From NCBI GenBank assembly GCA_003280265.1, contig QCFJ01000011.1:1-36210 (forward strand): DNA of 36,210 nt, given 5' to 3'. The stretch comes from Prochlorococcus sp. AG-363-G03. GTDB lineage: Bacteria; Cyanobacteriota; Cyanobacteriia; PCC-6307; Cyanobiaceae. Shown here piece by piece: positions 10,088 through 33,731 of this stretch (the first letter of the stretch is position 1; every line of letters starts with the position of its first letter). The translations under genes and the position numbers were made by a program. The notes beneath the pieces were generated by a model. The model saw only the letters and a program-made list of their open reading frames with translations, was not told the origin of the DNA and made no database searches.

Positions 10088-11676
10088 TTATAAAGTCACA
10101 GAATGAGCTTCGTTTATTCCTTGCATTGCAAGAATTGAGCCAAGCAACTCAGATGGGATAGGGTCATCGATACTTAAAACCATAACTGCCTCACCTCTAA
10201 CGATCCTTCTTCCTACTTGCATTGAGGCAATATTAACATTGTATTTTCCAAGAAGTGAACCTATCTGACCAATAATTCCAGGCATGTCCCTATGTCTCGT
10301 AAAAAGCATATGTCTACTTGGCACAAAATTTATCGGGTACTCATCAATACTTGTAATACCGAGATCACCATCACCAAAAACAGTACCAGAAACGCTATGT
10401 CCACCTTTGTCGCTAAAACTATCCAACTGTAAAGAGCCTCGAGCAAACTCTGGGCTCAATTCATCCTTAATTTCGACGACATCAATACCGCGTGCTTTTG
10501 CTTCCAATGAAGCGTTTACATAATTAATTTTATCTCCCAATGCACTAGTAAGTAACCCCTTCAAAGTAGCAATAACTAGCGGCTGAGATGGATGTTGAGC
10601 GAATTCTCCCTGCAAACGAACTTCTAATTTTTGAATCTGTCCCCCCTGAAATTTGACTAACTAATAATCCTAACGTCTCCGCAAGTTTTAAATGTGGTTT
10701 AAGACTATCCATTATCTCTGCGCTTAGACCAGGAATATTTACCGCGCTGCGTGCAGGCAAACCCAAAAGAACATCTCTAATTTGTTCTGCAACATCAATA
10801 GCTACATTTTGTTGTGCCTCAACAGTTGAAGCACCTAGATGAGGAGTAAGGACCAAGCCTTTTTTTACAGCGCGTAGAGGAGATTTCTCAGCTAAAGGTT
10901 CTTTTGCATATACATCGATTGCAGCACCTTGTATGACATTTTCTACTAATGCATTAGCTAAATCATTTTCATTAATAATTCCGCCCCTTGCACAATTCAC
11001 CAATCTTGCAGTTGGTTTCATTTTTTCTCAAAAGGTCCATATCAACTAAATTTTCTGTTTCAGGTGTCCTTGGAAGATGAAGGGTTACATAATCAGATTG
11101 CTTGAACAAATCTTCAATATCACTTAGTCGAACCTGCATTTGCTGAGCTCTTTCAGTTGAAACGAAAGGATCAAATCCTATGACTTCCATACCCATTGCA
11201 TTCGCGACCTTTGCTACATGAGATCCAATCTTGCCAAGTCCAACTACTCCTAAAGTTTTCTTATAAAGCTCATTCCCTACATATTTTTTGCGATCCCAAC
11301 CTCCAGAAAACATACTTGCATGTGCTTGAGGAATATTTCTAGATAATGCAAGAATCATTGCCAAAGCATGCTCTGCTGCTGCAATCGTGTTTCCACCTGG
11401 AGAATTTACAACTAAGACACCCTTTTTAGTAGCACTCGGAACATCAACATTATCAACCCCAACTCCAGCTCTACCAATGATTCTTAATTTCTTAGCCTCA
11501 GCAATCACATCTGAGGTAACTTGAGTTCCTGAACGGATCATTAAACCTTCATAATCACTAATAATATTCTTTAACTCATCTATCGAAAGACCTACTTTTT
11601 GGTCAACCTGAGCAACCTGAGTAAGAATATCTATACCTGCTTGATCAATTGAATCAGAAACAAGAACTTTCGTCAT
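10088..11676 (-). pseudogene. serA: D-3-phosphoglycerate dehydrogenase SerA, interrupted by two frameshifts
   Basis: The first enzyme of the phosphorylated serine pathway, split over three frames: 11676-10972, 11021-10545 and 10615-10088. Together they give the full ~528-residue protein: substrate domain (KVLVSDSIDQAGIDIL), Rossmann domain (TLGVVGLGKIGSHVA), VNCARGGIINE, ASB domain, and C-terminal ACT domain (RHRDMPGIIGQIGSLLG). The first break is in a run of six A (T6 on the plus strand at 11021-11026), where five would restore RKMKPTARL. The second is in a run of six G (C6 at 10641-10646), where five would restore SGGQIQKLEVRLQGEF. The total length exceeds a multiple of three by exactly those two bases. 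Protein conservation right up to both breaks argues for sequencing or assembly error or very recent damage. Confidence 0.93.
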
Positions 11677-21000: not shown

Positions 21001-21147
21001 TTAAACAAAACCAGGAATAATTTGGCCTGTTGTTGCATATGCACCGATCAAAGCAATACAACCAAATAGCGCTGCATACCCGTTAAGCCTTTCTGCGGTT
21101 ACCTTTTCAGGGTCAATGTTTCTTGTGATGTTTTCTTTAGTAGTCAT
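21001..21147 (-). CDS. hli: High-light-inducible protein (HLIP), third gene of the hli operon
   Basis: 48 residues, too short for most gene callers. After a polar N-terminus (ITRNIDPEKVTAERLNGY) it has one helix, AALFGCIALIGAYATTG, and ends QIIPGFV. This is the chlorophyll a/b-binding-like fold of HLIPs, thylakoid proteins that protect PSII and bind pigment under stress. The usual E-x-x-N-G-R motif appears as ERLNGY, with Tyr in place of the Arg, as often in Prochlorococcus multicopy hli genes. Its ATG overlaps the previous gene's TAA by one base (TAATG), implying coupled translation. Confidence 0.9.
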   Translation of the reverse strand: MTTKENITRNIDPEKVTAERLNGYAALFGCIALIGAYATTGQIIPGFV

Positions 21148-21266
21148 TACACAACTCCAGGAATAAGTTGGCCAGTAGTTAGGTAGATACCTGTTAGAAG
21201 TACGAAAGCCATCATTGCTGGTCTGCCGATGCTTCTTTCCAAGATTGTCTTGTTAGATGGTTGCAT
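21147..21266 (-). CDS. hli: High-light-inducible protein (HLIP), second gene of the hli operon
   Basis: 39 residues. MQPSNKTILERSIGRPAMM keeps the E...GRPAM chlorophyll-binding signature with its Arg. The helix AFVLLTGIYLTTG follows, and the protein ends QLIPGVV. It starts 10 bases after the first gene's stop and overlaps the third gene by one base. This ERSIGRPAM subtype differs from the NGY/NGW subtype on both sides, so the operon mixes two HLIP types. Confidence 0.9.
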   Translation of the reverse strand: MQPSNKTILERSIGRPAMMAFVLLTGIYLTTGQLIPGVV

Positions 21267-21276
21267 GATTAAAATT

Positions 21277-21384
21277 TTAGAAAATACCAGGAATTATTTG
21301 TCCTGTTGTTGCATATGCGCCAAAGGCTGCAACGAAGCCAAGCATTGCTGCCCAACCATTAAACTTTTCTGCTTCAGGAGTCAT
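21277..21384 (-). CDS. hli: High-light-inducible protein (HLIP), first gene of the hli operon
   Basis: 35 residues beginning MTPEAEKFNGWAAMLGF and ending AYATTGQIIPGIF. An upstream in-frame ATG would give a 67-residue reading, but the extra part is unlike any HLIP and would run across the HLR1 site, so I take the ATG at 21384. The helix carries NGW where Arg is usual. This TGQIIPG ending is the signature of multicopy Prochlorococcus and cyanophage hli genes. Confidence 0.92.
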   Translation of the reverse strand: MTPEAEKFNGWAAMLGFVAAFGAYATTGQIIPGIF

Positions 21385-21400
21385 TTGGTAATGAATCGAA

Positions 21401-21418
21401 TATGTAAAGGAATGTAAC
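21401..21418 (-). promoter_or_regulatory. HLR1 motif (RpaB-binding site) upstream of the hli operon
   Basis: On the minus strand the sequence is GTTACATTCCTTTACATA: two direct repeats of (G/T)TTACA(T/A)(T/A) separated by 2 bases, an exact fit to the HLR1 consensus bound by RpaB, the response regulator controlled by NblS. It ends 16 bases before the first hli start codon. That is very close, so RpaB would probably overlap the promoter or sit in the leader and repress in low light. Motif match is observed; binding is inferred. Confidence 0.75.
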
Positions 21419-21578
21419 GAACTATTGTATGTTGTTGATGGTGGGCAACCGAACATAATAGTAAAAATTATCAAGTGCATTAGAAAAATCTATATAAAAA
21501 CAAAATCTGAGTGCTTGTATTTTCTTTGAAACAATTAAGGATCACTATAATAATTAAAAAATTTAATCAATAAGGAAT

Positions 21579-22833: not shown

Positions 22834-22980
22834 GTTAAGAAAACTAAATCTTAGCGGCAATAATGATTTTCATAAAAATATCTAACTAGATGAAAACCGG
22901 GATTTATAAATTAACTAATTTCGATTATTAATAAATGGCAAGGACAAGAGGTTTACAAAAGCTTATTAATTTTTCCCTAA

Positions 22981-23103
22981 TCATGTTTTTCGTAAAACAC
23001 CACACTTATCCTTCTTAGATGCAGGCGTAAATGTATCAAAGGGGCCGATGTTTATCATCACAAAGATGCCATATCTCCCCGTGGTGACAGTGATTTTGAG
23101 CAT
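22981..23103 (-). CDS. Candidate 40-residue small protein
   Basis: ATG-initiated frame reading MLKITVTTGRYGIFVMINIG, then PFDTFTPASKKDKCGVLRKT. Amphipathic, with a hydrophobic strand-like core and a basic tail. The frame continues protein-like upstream of the ATG (DYLQSLNGVKFDDELI) to a stop, so the start may be non-canonical or the gene may be a decayed longer one. It is one of two supportable items in the 22834-23788 gap. No family recognised. Confidence 0.35.
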   Translation of the reverse strand: MLKITVTTGRYGIFVMINIGPFDTFTPASKKDKCGVLRKT

Positions 23104-23480
23104 TATTAATTCATCATCAAATTTGACACCATTTAGTGATTGAAGGTAGTCGAAAATTCACTCTTATCAACCCTAAAGGGGATGAGCTACTCCATGTTAT
23201 TTTTCAGTAGAGCAATGGGTGCACTTCAAATACTAATTAGCAAATAGCCCCTATCAAAGTCAGATTAAAAAGGTAGTGATCCTTGAAAAATCTTCAAGTA
23301 AGATAATCATCGCCTGTAAAAATAATGCAAATTATTGCTTAGTTGCTTTTTTATTTGTTTGTAAATTCCTATTTCGTTTTAGCCAGATCAGCCTTGTCTG
23401 GATTAGGGATACTGAAATGAGTTAGCATTTCATGAGAATCATGAGAAATTCAAAAATATTGAAACCTTATACATAACTAA

Positions 23481-29981: not shown

Positions 29982-31028
29982 ATGCGTCGCTTGGTATCAG
30001 GAATAGTTGGTCTAGCAGCTCTATTAGCTGGTTGTGCGACAACAAATCAAAACAATAGTTCTAGACTTAACCTGATAAAAAATCGCAACGAGTTAATTTG
30101 TGGAGTAAGTGGGAAGATTCCGGGATTTAGTTTTCTGAAAAGTGATGGTAGTTATGAAGGACTAGATGTGGATATATGTAAAGCATTTGCTGCTGCATTT
30201 ATAGGAGATTCGGAAAAAATCCAATACAGGACTCTAACTGCAGCAGAAAGATTTACAGCTATAAAAACTGGGGAAATTGACCTTTTATCAAGAAATACCA
30301 CTTTCACTCTCAGTAGAGATTCCTCAGGAGGAAATGGGTTAACTTTTGCACCAGTTGTTTTCCATGATGGGCAGGGATTGATGGTTAAGAAGGAAAGTAA
30401 AATTAGTAGCCTGAAAGATCTTGCAAATAAATCTATATGTGTAGGCTCAGGCACAACCACTGAGCAAAATATAAATGATGCATTCGAGAGTGCCTCGCTG
30501 CCTTATACACCAATCAAATATCAAGACCTTAATCAAGTAGTTGCTGGTTATTTACAGGGTCGTTGTTCAGCCATGACTTCTGATCGTTCACAATTAGCAG
30601 CAGCCAGATCTGGTTTTAAAAATCCAAAAGAACATATTATTCTAGATGATGTATTAAGCAAGGAGCCACTTGCTCCAGCCTCCGATGGCCAAGATCAGAA
30701 ACTAGCTGATGCGATGAGATGGGTTATCTTTTCCCTAATATCAGCAGAAGAGCAAGGGATAACAAAGTCAAATATTGATGAAAAAGTACAACTTGCAAAA
30801 AATAATCCTCAATTAAAACCTTTAAGAAGATTTCTAGGTATTGATGGAGGCCTAGGAGAAAAAATTGGTCTTAGCAATGACTTCGTAGTTAAAGTAATTA
30901 GCTCAACTGGCAATTATGGCGAGATTTACGAAAGAAATTTAGGTCAAAATAGCGAGGTACCTATTCCAAGAGGACAAAATGAGTTATATAACAAAGGAGG
31001 TGTACATATTTCACCACCATTTAACTAA
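29982..31028 (+). CDS. Polar amino-acid ABC transporter, substrate-binding lipoprotein (AapJ/NatF type)
   Basis: 348 residues. The lipobox LLAGC follows a short signal peptide, so the protein is anchored after processing at Cys18. The SBP_bac_3 domain shows ICGVSGKIPGFSFLKSDG, GLDVDICKAFAAAF, AAERFTAIKTGEIDLLSRNTT and SICVGSGTTTEQNI. The GLDVDICKAFAAA and DLLSRNTTFTLSRD runs match the AapJ/BztA general L-amino-acid subfamily, called NatF in cyanobacteria. ATG start. First gene of a four-gene operon. Confidence 0.93.
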   Translation: MRRLVSGIVGLAALLAGCATTNQNNSSRLNLIKNRNELICGVSGKIPGFSFLKSDGSYEGLDVDICKAFAAAFIGDSEKIQYRTLTAAERFTAIKTGEIDLLSRNTTFTLSRDSSGGNGLTFAPVVFHDGQGLMVKKESKISSLKDLANKSICVGSGTTTEQNINDAFESASLPYTPIKYQDLNQVVAGYLQGRCSAMTSDRSQLAAARSGFKNPKEHIILDDVLSKEPLAPASDGQDQKLADAMRWVIFSLISAEEQGITKSNIDEKVQLAKNNPQLKPLRRFLGIDGGLGEKIGLSNDFVVKVISSTGNYGEIYERNLGQNSEVPIPRGQNELYNKGGVHISPPFN

Positions 31029-31046
31029 AAATAATTTGTTACGGGA

Positions 31047-31946
31047 ATGAAAATAAATCAAAAAATATTTTTTCAATTAGGGACAACTATTATCTTTTTT
31101 GGTTTGATTGGGATACTAATTAATAATTTGACAATAAATCTAATAAGAACAGGTCTTGGTTTTAATTTTAGCTGGCTTTTTAAACCAGCGAGTTTTGCTT
31201 TAGCGGAACACCCCTTACCTTATACCTCCTCAGATAGCTATGCTTGGGCATTATTTATAGGTTGGCTTAATAGTCTAAAAGTAATAGTCTCATCATTATT
31301 ATTAGCTACTTTATTGGGAATACTTGTAGGCTTTGCAAGAACTGGTAAAAACTCATTACTAGGGCTTATTTCAGCTGGGTACATTACAATTATTCGCCAA
31401 ACCCCTCTTTTACTTCAACTTATGTTTTGGTATTTTGTTGGTTTTCTAGGCTTAAAAGATAATGTATTAATCCAGATAAAAGATATATTTATAATTTCAA
31501 ATGAAGGAATAGAGTTATCAGGGTTCAACCTATCTTCAGAGTTTTCAGCATTGTTACTTGGTCTAAGTATTTTCGCAAGTGCGTATATAGCAGAAGTGAT
31601 TCGTGGAGGGATACTTTCTGTTCCAAGGGGGCAATGGGAAGCTTATAGAAGCTTAGGGCTCTCTGAAAGAAAAGGTCTTATCAGCATCATAATTCCACAA
31701 GCGTTACCAGCAATCATTCCAGGATTAACAAGTCAATATCTTAATCTTGCAAAGAATAGTACCTTAGCGATAGCAGTTGGTTACTCAGATATTTATGCAA
31801 TAAATGATACTATTATTAATCAAACTGGAAGAGCAATCGAATGCTTCCTTATATTGCTTACTAGTTTCTTATTATTAAATCTATTAATAAGTAATAGCAT
31901 GGAAATTATTAATAGGATAATTATTAACTCTAGAAAACATAACTAA
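31047..31946 (+). CDS. Amino-acid ABC transporter permease (AapQ/NatG type)
   Basis: 299 residues, membrane-spanning. The HisM-type domain includes LNSLKVIVSSLLLATLLGILVGFART and the C-terminal coupling loop EVIRGGILSVPRGQWEAYRSLGLS with IIIPQALPAIIPGLTSQYLN (EAA loop). It is shorter than rhizobial AapQ (about 400) because the long N-terminal part is reduced. Starts 18 bases after the binding protein. Forms the heteromeric channel with the next gene. Confidence 0.93.
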   Translation: MKINQKIFFQLGTTIIFFGLIGILINNLTINLIRTGLGFNFSWLFKPASFALAEHPLPYTSSDSYAWALFIGWLNSLKVIVSSLLLATLLGILVGFARTGKNSLLGLISAGYITIIRQTPLLLQLMFWYFVGFLGLKDNVLIQIKDIFIISNEGIELSGFNLSSEFSALLLGLSIFASAYIAEVIRGGILSVPRGQWEAYRSLGLSERKGLISIIIPQALPAIIPGLTSQYLNLAKNSTLAIAVGYSDIYAINDTIINQTGRAIECFLILLTSFLLLNLLISNSMEIINRIIINSRKHN

Positions 31947-31958
31947 TTCATACTAAAT

Positions 31959-32978
31959 ATGACTTTAATTATATATCTATTTCAAAGACTAAGAAAAACT
32001 TTGTTTTCAAGTTTATCCAATAGCATTATTAGCCTAATCTTCATATTGATTATTAGTTTAGTTTGTCTAAATACGTTTAAATGGCTTATATTTAAAGCTA
32101 ATTGGGCAGTTGTCACATCGAATCTTCCTTTGTATGCATTTGGTAGCTTCCCACCGAATGAACGATGGAGGCCTACAACTTGGATTATTATTCTCTTTTC
32201 ACTCAGTATCATTACCATTTTTGGCCCTGGATGGAAATGGCTACGCAAAAATCTTTTAATAGCATGGGTAGGAACTATACCCCTAGGCCTTTATTTACTT
32301 TATGGGGGATTTGGATTATCACCTATCATGAGTAGACATTGGGGAGGATTAACTCTAACTATTCTACTAACTGCTTGTAGTTCATTTTTATCATTACCAT
32401 TGGGAATAGTCTTAGCACTTTGCCGTCAAAGTTCATTACCATTAATTCAGAAGCTAAGTTCGTTCTATATAGATGTAATGAGAGCAGTCCCTCTTATTGC
32501 TGTACTTTTCTTTGGTCAACTATTAATACCTTTATTTCTTCCAGTAGAAATAGAAGTTGATCGTGTTTGGAGAGCTATCTTTGCATTCACTCTTTTTGTC
32601 TCTGCCTACATAGCAGAAGATATTCGTGGCGGATTGCAGTCAATCCCTAACACCCAAATAGAAGCAGCTAATAGTCTTGGCCTTAATCAATTCCAAATCA
32701 TCCAATTGATATTGATACCTCAAGCCTTACGTATTGCATTACCTGCTTTGACTAACCAATCCATCGGACTTTTTCAAAATACATCTTTAATGGCTATTTT
32801 AGGATTAGTGGAGTTACTTGGTGTAGGCAGAAGTATCCTGGCTAATCCAGAATTTATTGGTCAATATATTGAAGTTTATGTTTGGCTAGCATGTGTCTAT
32901 TGGATGGTTTGTACAATCATGGCTGTTCTAGCAAGACATCTTGAACAAAGAATGACCATTAACCAAGCTAATTTTTGA
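31959..32978 (+). CDS. Amino-acid ABC transporter permease (AapM/NatH type)
   Basis: 339 residues, membrane-spanning. An N-terminal helix and WWIF-like region are followed by GGLTLTILLTACSSFLSLPLGIVLALCRQ and the EAA loop EDIRGGLQSIPNTQIEAANSLGLN with ILIPQALRIALPALTNQSIG. The Y-x-D-x-x-RAVPL segment is typical of AapM/BztC. ATG 12 bases after the previous stop. Second half of the importer's membrane pore. Confidence 0.93.
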   Translation: MTLIIYLFQRLRKTLFSSLSNSIISLIFILIISLVCLNTFKWLIFKANWAVVTSNLPLYAFGSFPPNERWRPTTWIIILFSLSIITIFGPGWKWLRKNLLIAWVGTIPLGLYLLYGGFGLSPIMSRHWGGLTLTILLTACSSFLSLPLGIVLALCRQSSLPLIQKLSSFYIDVMRAVPLIAVLFFGQLLIPLFLPVEIEVDRVWRAIFAFTLFVSAYIAEDIRGGLQSIPNTQIEAANSLGLNQFQIIQLILIPQALRIALPALTNQSIGLFQNTSLMAILGLVELLGVGRSILANPEFIGQYIEVYVWLACVYWMVCTIMAVLARHLEQRMTINQANF

Positions 32979-32984
32979 TAATTC

Positions 32985-33731
32985 ATGGAACCTATTGTTG
33001 TTGCAAAGAATCTCACTAAGTCTTACACAAAAGGATTACGAGCTCTTGATAATGTTTCTCTGACAGTTAATCAAGGAACAGTCCTAGTGGTAATGGGTCC
33101 CTCTGGCTCAGGGAAAAGTACTCTGATTCGAACCTTTAATGGTCTTGAAACTTTTGACACAGGAGAACTGAATGTTTTAGGAATAACAGTTAATTCCACT
33201 CATGATGAAAAGAAAATCCAAAAAATAAGAAGAAGAGTAGGAATGGTTTTTCAACAATTCAATTTATTCCCTCATCTATCAATCCTTGAAAATATCACTC
33301 TCGCTCCAATAAATGTGCAAAAACGTCGTCAAATTGAAGCGGAAGAATATGGCATGTATCTCTTAAATCAAATGGGAATAGATTCACACGCGAAAAAATA
33401 CCCAAGTCAACTTAGCGGAGGGGAACAGCAACGAGTAGCCATAGCTAGAGCGTTAGCATTAAAGCCTGAGTTGCTTCTATTTGATGAACCCACTAGCGCT
33501 CTAGATCCAGAAAGAATCAATGAGGTACTCGATGCGATGAGAAGACTTGCTGAGCAAGGCATGACAATGGTTGTAGTCACACATGAAATTGGTTTTGCTA
33601 AAGACGTAAGTGATCAAGTTTTATTTATGGATTCAGGTAAAGTCATAGAAACATCTCCTCCAAATATTTTCTTTTCCAATGCAAGACACGAGAGAAGTAG
33701 AAAATTTCTAAATCAACTTGATAAACATTAG
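32985..33731 (+). CDS. Amino-acid ABC transporter ATPase (AapP/BgtA type)
   Basis: 248 residues. Walker A GPSGSGKST (about 38-46), Q loop VFQQFNLFPHLS, signature LSGGEQQRVAIARALA, Walker B LLLFDEPTSALDPE and switch VVTHEIGFAKDVSD are all intact. Belongs to the GlnQ/HisP group. Starts 6 bases after the permease. It supplies the energy for uptake. In Anabaena, natFGH with bgtA transports acidic and neutral polar amino acids; the same specificity is plausible here but unproven. Confidence 0.95.
   Translation: MEPIVVAKNLTKSYTKGLRALDNVSLTVNQGTVLVVMGPSGSGKSTLIRTFNGLETFDTGELNVLGITVNSTHDEKKIQKIRRRVGMVFQQFNLFPHLSILENITLAPINVQKRRQIEAEEYGMYLLNQMGIDSHAKKYPSQLSGGEQQRVAIARALALKPELLLFDEPTSALDPERINEVLDAMRRLAEQGMTMVVVTHEIGFAKDVSDQVLFMDSGKVIETSPPNIFFSNARHERSRKFLNQLDKH

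What the first reader, a model, noticed from the sequence alone, without database searches (positions are those of the whole stretch)
10088..11676. serA split by two single-base insertions, both in homopolymers
Seen: three overlapping frames rebuild one full-length SerA, with one extra A in a run of six (11021-11026, T on plus strand) and one extra G in a run of six (10641-10646, C on plus strand). Everything else, including the ACT domain, is intact. Either the assembly has indel errors typical of homopolymers, or the strain has just lost the phosphorylated serine pathway, or slippage restores the frame in some product. A real double lesion would imply serine supply from glycine or uptake, and the window carries an amino-acid importer.
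Basis: partly seen in the sequence, partly recalled or inferred. Interest (0 to 1): 0.72.

Follow-up and report, generated by a model that had tools for sequence, protein, structure and literature searches.

The report
Probable sequencing artefact splitting serA
A serine-making gene in a marine cyanobacterium looks broken by two extra letters, but comparison with relatives suggests an error in a partial genome assembly rather than a real gene loss, so it is probably ordinary.

Summary
It is not a clade trait: 29 of 29 congener loci and 80 of 80 genome-contig loci (overlapping sets) have an uninterrupted serA.

The assembly is not full of homopolymer errors. Of 324 genes (298 kb) compared with a closed relative, serA was the only one found with single-base frameshifts inside the gene, although that sequence holds 842 runs of six or more. 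The fault is local to serA.

Apart from the insertions serA shows no clear decay: 3 private non-synonymous changes, against a mean of 2.3 in 29 intact relatives. Two successive neutral insertions should have come with more. The assembly is 57% complete and probably from a single cell; the workflow behind several near relatives has a published benchmark of 3.0 indels per 100 kb.

I judge a local amplification or assembly artefact most likely (0.70) and a genuine, very recent serA null second (0.24). Slippage, a working split gene or a mutator are unlikely. Raw reads would settle it.

The parts
10088..11676 (-). serA, D-3-phosphoglycerate dehydrogenase, split by two one-base insertions
   Evidence: tblastn of four relatives' 528-aa SerA in three frames; Pfam domains
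10972..11676 (-). Piece 1: ORF of 234 aa; residues 1 to about 218 of SerA, then out of frame
11021..11026 (-). First site: run of six A, one base more than in the close relatives
10545..11021 (-). Piece 2: ORF of 158 aa; SerA residues from about 219 to about 345, then out of frame
10641..10646 (-). Second site: run of six G, one base more than the frame of the close relatives allows
10088..10615 (-). Piece 3: ORF of 175 aa with the intervening and ACT domains
29982..33731 (+).
   Evidence: Pfam; binding protein and permeases also in G020

Best explanation
The two extra bases are most likely a local technical error in this partial assembly, and the cell's serA was an ordinary intact gene making D-3-phosphoglycerate dehydrogenase. 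Inferred mechanism: uneven whole-genome amplification left few independent fragments over serA, and one-base slips in the A and G runs, made in amplification, library PCR, reading or assembly, were not outvoted. Shown: the insertions are private to this assembly among the sequences read, are confined to serA in the survey, and come without clear further decay. Inferred: the technical origin, the low coverage and the single-cell source.
For: 29 of 29 congener loci and 80 of 80 genome-contig loci (overlapping sets) have an uninterrupted serA. 249 of 251 genomes at least 90% complete and at most 5% contaminated have a match. Private changes in this serA are few: 2 synonymous and 3 non-synonymous, against 77 and 68 over 29 relatives. 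If indels arise at a tenth of the substitution rate (recalled), two neutral insertions should bring about 11 more non-synonymous changes; 3 or fewer then has probability 6e-4 (0.04 at a ratio of one to five). The workflow used for several near relatives has benchmark averages of 3.0 indels and 5.0 mismatches per 100 kb (PMC6122165, Methods). The assembly is 57% complete in 61 contigs.
Against: The assembly is otherwise clean: 324 genes, 297,682 coding bases, 827 A/T and 15 G/C runs of six or more, and no other single-base frameshift found inside a gene. The benchmark rate would predict about 9 indels there; 2 were seen (probability of 2 or fewer 0.007), and both in one gene has probability 0.005 for random hits. 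P. marinus assemblies tended to have the fewest indels in the method paper (PMC5519541, passages). Four other partial congener assemblies gave no in-gene single-base frameshift among their multi-frame rows in 232 genes. The 3 private residue changes equal the highest values among the 22 closest relatives, L003-L024 (0 to 3). Read depth could not be seen, and the window's accession is unknown.
Confidence: 0.7

Rival explanations
1. A genuine and very recent serA null in this wild cell: one +1 slip inactivated the gene and a second followed. Serine would come from glycine through serine hydroxymethyltransferase, or from uptake.
For: The assembly is otherwise clean, so two indels in one gene are unlikely as random errors (0.005). 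Serine hydroxymethyltransferase is intact (421-aa open frame) and an amino-acid-type importer is present. SAR11 isolates live without a complete serABC set (PMC10030771, passages).
Against: No clear relaxed selection; two neutral insertions without matching substitutions are unlikely; no broken serA in 29 congener or 80 wider loci. In a very large population a null in a conserved gene should be rare (inference).
Confidence: 0.24
2. The three frames are expressed as separate chains that reassemble into a working enzyme; the second ATG lies directly after the A run.
For: Piece 2 begins at an ATG at 11021 and pieces 1 and 2 overlap, which would allow coupled translation.
Against: The first break falls inside the NAD-binding domain, at position 117 of 178 of the Pfam profile; no relative read has such a split.
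Confidence: 0.02
3. Transcriptional slippage or ribosomal frameshifting restores the frame at both sites.
For: Both breaks lie in homopolymers.
Against: Runs are only six long, one is G, and two rescues are needed in each transcript. In E. coli and Buchnera, homopolymer transcript insertions fell only in A or T runs and rise with length, while deletions, the direction needed here, were rarely in homopolymers (PMC5574713, passages). Avoidance of A/T runs is evident at nine in many genomes (PMC1088944, passages). The insertions are not conserved.
Confidence: 0.01
4. The cell is a mutator (for example mismatch-repair deficient), so homopolymer slips accumulate.
For: Both changes are +1 in homopolymers, as in mismatch-repair mutants (recalled).
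Against: No other in-gene single-base frameshift found in 324 genes with 842 runs of six or more. Repair genes were not searched.
Confidence: 0.02

Closest known systems
Indel errors in single-cell amplified genome assemblies
   Same: Single-base indels in an otherwise normal gene of a partial Prochlorococcus assembly; benchmark 3.0 indels per 100 kb.
   Different: Two fall in one gene and none other was found in the 298 kb compared.
Loss of serABC and glycine/serine dependence in SAR11 subclade I isolates
   Same: Would remove the same biosynthetic entry step in an abundant streamlined marine bacterium (PMC10030771, PMC6775983, passages).
   Different: There the genes are missing; here serA is full length apart from two bases and shows no clear decay.
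Homopolymer frameshifts rescued by transcriptional slippage in AT-rich bacterial genomes
   Same: Frame break in a homopolymer of an AT-rich genome.
   Different: Runs are only six long, one is G, two rescues would be needed, and no relative shares the break.

Membership tests
SerA, D-3-phosphoglycerate dehydrogenase with intervening and ACT domains | 2-Hacid_dh, 2-Hacid_dh_C, PGDH_inter and ACT domains in order | tested here: met
   Found across the three pieces in the order seen in the intact G028 protein
SerA, D-3-phosphoglycerate dehydrogenase with intervening and ACT domains | One open reading frame | tested here: not met
   Three frames in the assembled sequence
Pseudogene by neutral decay | Frame-breaking lesions absent from relatives | tested here: met
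   Two private insertions
Pseudogene by neutral decay | Relaxed selection or further lesions | tested here: not met
   3 private non-synonymous changes against a mean of 2.3 in relatives; no further stop
Technical indel error | Reads or an independent copy disagree with the assembled run length | not testable with these tools
   No reads held; nearest genome about 91% identical over the locus
Technical indel error | Assembly-wide excess of homopolymer indels | tested here: not met
   No other in-gene case found in 324 genes; a local patch is still possible
Programmed slippage or frameshift gene | Break conserved in relatives | tested here: not met
   29 of 29 congener loci are in frame

The most novel reading that the evidence does not exclude
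The cell truly carried a very recent serA null and lived on serine from glycine or uptake: a first step, in a Prochlorococcus, towards the serine dependence known from SAR11.
Probability: 0.22. Interest if true: 0.5.

Novelty: not a real feature. Interest (0 to 1): 0.15.

Why it matters
Taken at face value, this contig would suggest that a wild Prochlorococcus has lost a near-universal biosynthetic gene. The case shows how to weigh such a finding: a clean assembly elsewhere speaks for the lesion, while the absence of accompanying decay speaks against it. If reads confirmed it, it would be a natural test of serine supply from glycine in an oxygenic phototroph.

Tried and rejected
General homopolymer error in the assembly: rejected by the survey of 324 genes against closed relative G020. 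That call flagged 16 rows for several frames, an early stop or low coverage: serA; four other multi-frame rows; eight with stops only within the first 20 residues (read as start codons called too early in the reference; not examined one by one); and three single-frame rows not resolved (L202:1034-1342 with one stop, and two partial rows in L207). Of the four multi-frame rows, three were read at DNA level: in L203 a one-base difference upstream of the likely start; in L202:15460-15836 a two-base difference past a stop, where I read a convergent gene by eye; in L125:1003-1631 a four-base difference near the end of a 210-aa ORF, still ambiguous. L120 looks like two tandem similar segments (not examined further). 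The survey is not exhaustive: it took the best hit per reference ORF, so a truncated ORF at window 22970-23277 was passed over for a 60%-identical copy in L126.

Other multi-frame rows in the window: the 102-aa G033 ORF at 21250-21508 is not an ORF in G020, G028 or G010 and lies opposite a 67-aa minus-strand ORF (69 aa in G020 and G010), so I do not count it as a lesion. A 97-aa G028 ORF at 220-511 overlaps the kinase and KaiC-like genes and was not followed up.

Controls G006, G014, G018, G009 (232 genes): six rows printed after showing only multi-frame rows or stops beyond residue 40. The G018 row is antisense to a 968-aa ORF and the multi-frame G014 row is a start-site difference. The G009 row has a one-base difference upstream of the likely start. 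The G006 row and two more G014 rows are single-frame and were not followed up. Rows hidden by the display filter were not looked at.

Loss of serC as support: rejected. The canonical model gives no match here and is below cut-off in 7 of 7 relatives. The strongest class V aminotransferase of the 8 relatives searched is also unseen here, as is glycine decarboxylase P; incompleteness can explain both.

Loss of serA in sister genomes: 5 of 41 same-genus genomes (G001, G012, G021, G024, G354; 51 to 86% complete) have no match; incompleteness predicts about 7.7. Two of 251 high-quality family genomes lack a match (G400, G415), and some counted matches are weak only (for example G095, G166, G237).

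Literature: the search for Prochlorococcus serA (titles and abstract starts of 15 of 405 papers) showed nothing on its loss. I make no claim that it is unpublished.

Full report
Observation. On the minus strand serA runs from 11676 to 10088 with a run of six A at 11026-11021 and six G at 10646-10641. SerA proteins of four relatives align to the window in three collinear pieces in three frames. In DNA alignments of the close relatives the window is one base longer at each site. With one base dropped from each run in a script, the gene reads 528 residues with only the final stop, the length found in 29 of 29 congener loci. The Pfam domains are divided among the pieces.

Source. The window is contig 11 of a 61-contig, 1.21 Mb assembly rated 57% complete. 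The nearest genomes searched are about 91% identical over the locus. By length, G020 and G033 look like the closed LLI genomes MIT0801 and NATL2A (recalled). That the window itself is from a single cell is inferred.

Is serA broken in relatives? No case was seen. 29 of 29 congener loci and 80 of 80 genome-contig loci, the best 80 kept of 407, hold an uninterrupted serA; the sets overlap. In the family search 381 of 400 genomes have a match, and 249 of 251 among those at least 90% complete and at most 5% contaminated; some matches are weak only, and the list of matches was cut, so intactness was not seen for all. Five of 41 same-genus genomes lack a match; incompleteness predicts about 7.7. Six-G runs at the second site occur in frame in some relatives, for example L003 and L016, so such a run does not by itself force a shift.

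Is the assembly bad at homopolymers in general? No. 1,110 ORFs of at least 100 aa from 1.38 Mb of G020 were compared with 694 kb of this assembly, giving 324 genes and 297,682 distinct coding bases. Of 16 flagged rows, serA is the only one found to have single-base changes inside a gene. Three other multi-frame rows were read at DNA level: one difference lies upstream of a gene, one after a stop, and one is a four-base difference near a gene end and stays ambiguous. Eight rows look like start-site differences, one like tandem segments, and three single-frame rows were not resolved. The compared sequence holds 827 A/T and 15 G/C runs of six or more. In four other partial congener assemblies, 232 genes gave six displayed rows; the two multi-frame ones are a start-site difference and an upstream one-base difference.

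Does the gene show decay? Not clearly. At amino-acid columns invariant in the 29 relatives this serA has three changes; the relatives have 0 to 6 each, and the 22 closest, L003-L024, 0 to 3. At invariant DNA columns it has two synonymous and three non-synonymous changes; the 29 relatives total 77 and 68. If indels arise at about a tenth of the substitution rate (recalled), two neutral insertions should bring about eleven more non-synonymous changes at these sites; three or fewer then has probability about 6e-4, or 0.04 at a ratio of one to five. So both insertions appeared late and with little else, which suits a technical origin better than successive neutral decay.

Expected technical rate. 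The data paper quotes benchmark averages of 3.0 indels and 5.0 mismatches per 100 kb for its workflow (PMC6122165, Methods part 1 of 2 and Usage Notes read). That predicts about 9 indels in the coding sequence compared, against 2 seen (probability of 2 or fewer 0.007), and two or more in a given serA-sized gene with probability 0.0011. The method paper says P. marinus assemblies tended to have the fewest indels (PMC5519541, passages). So this assembly is cleaner than the benchmark, yet both indels fall in one gene (0.005 for two random hits). This is the main evidence against a random error; a patch of low coverage over serA would reconcile it, but coverage cannot be seen here.

Alternatives. 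A real null could be fed by serine hydroxymethyltransferase, which is intact here, or by uptake. The importer at 29982-33731 is a binding protein, two permeases and an ATPase, but the binding protein and permeases are also in G020 with intact serA. The canonical serC model is below cut-off in 7 of 7 relatives, with weak matches to a 384-aa class V aminotransferase. Glycine decarboxylase P is found in G020 and G033 but not here, which incompleteness can explain but which would also weaken the glycine route if real. Slippage is unlikely: in E. coli and Buchnera homopolymer transcript insertions fell only in A or T runs and rise with run length, and deletions, needed here, were rarely in homopolymers (PMC5574713, passages); avoidance of A/T runs is evident at nine in many genomes (PMC1088944, passages).

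Verdict. The sequence is as described; the biological lesion is probably not real. Local artefact 0.70, real recent null 0.24, other readings together about 0.06. Only reads can decide.

Noticed in passing
window 22970-23332: About 1.1 to 1.3 kb present in G020, G028, G033 and G010 is missing between 23277 and 23332, truncating a 180-190 aa ORF that all four carry; its remains lie in two or more frames. A 60%-identical copy is in contig C10 of the same assembly (L126).
   Followed up: partly
window 21001-21048 and 21274-21323: A repeat of about 46 bases occurs twice here and again in each of the four relatives compared.
   Followed up: no
L233-L236 (G011, G026, G020, G033): Seven of seven relatives have no match above the canonical serC cut-off, only a weak match to a 384- or 385-aa class V aminotransferase. 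Which enzyme does this step is open, although serA is near-universal.
   Followed up: no
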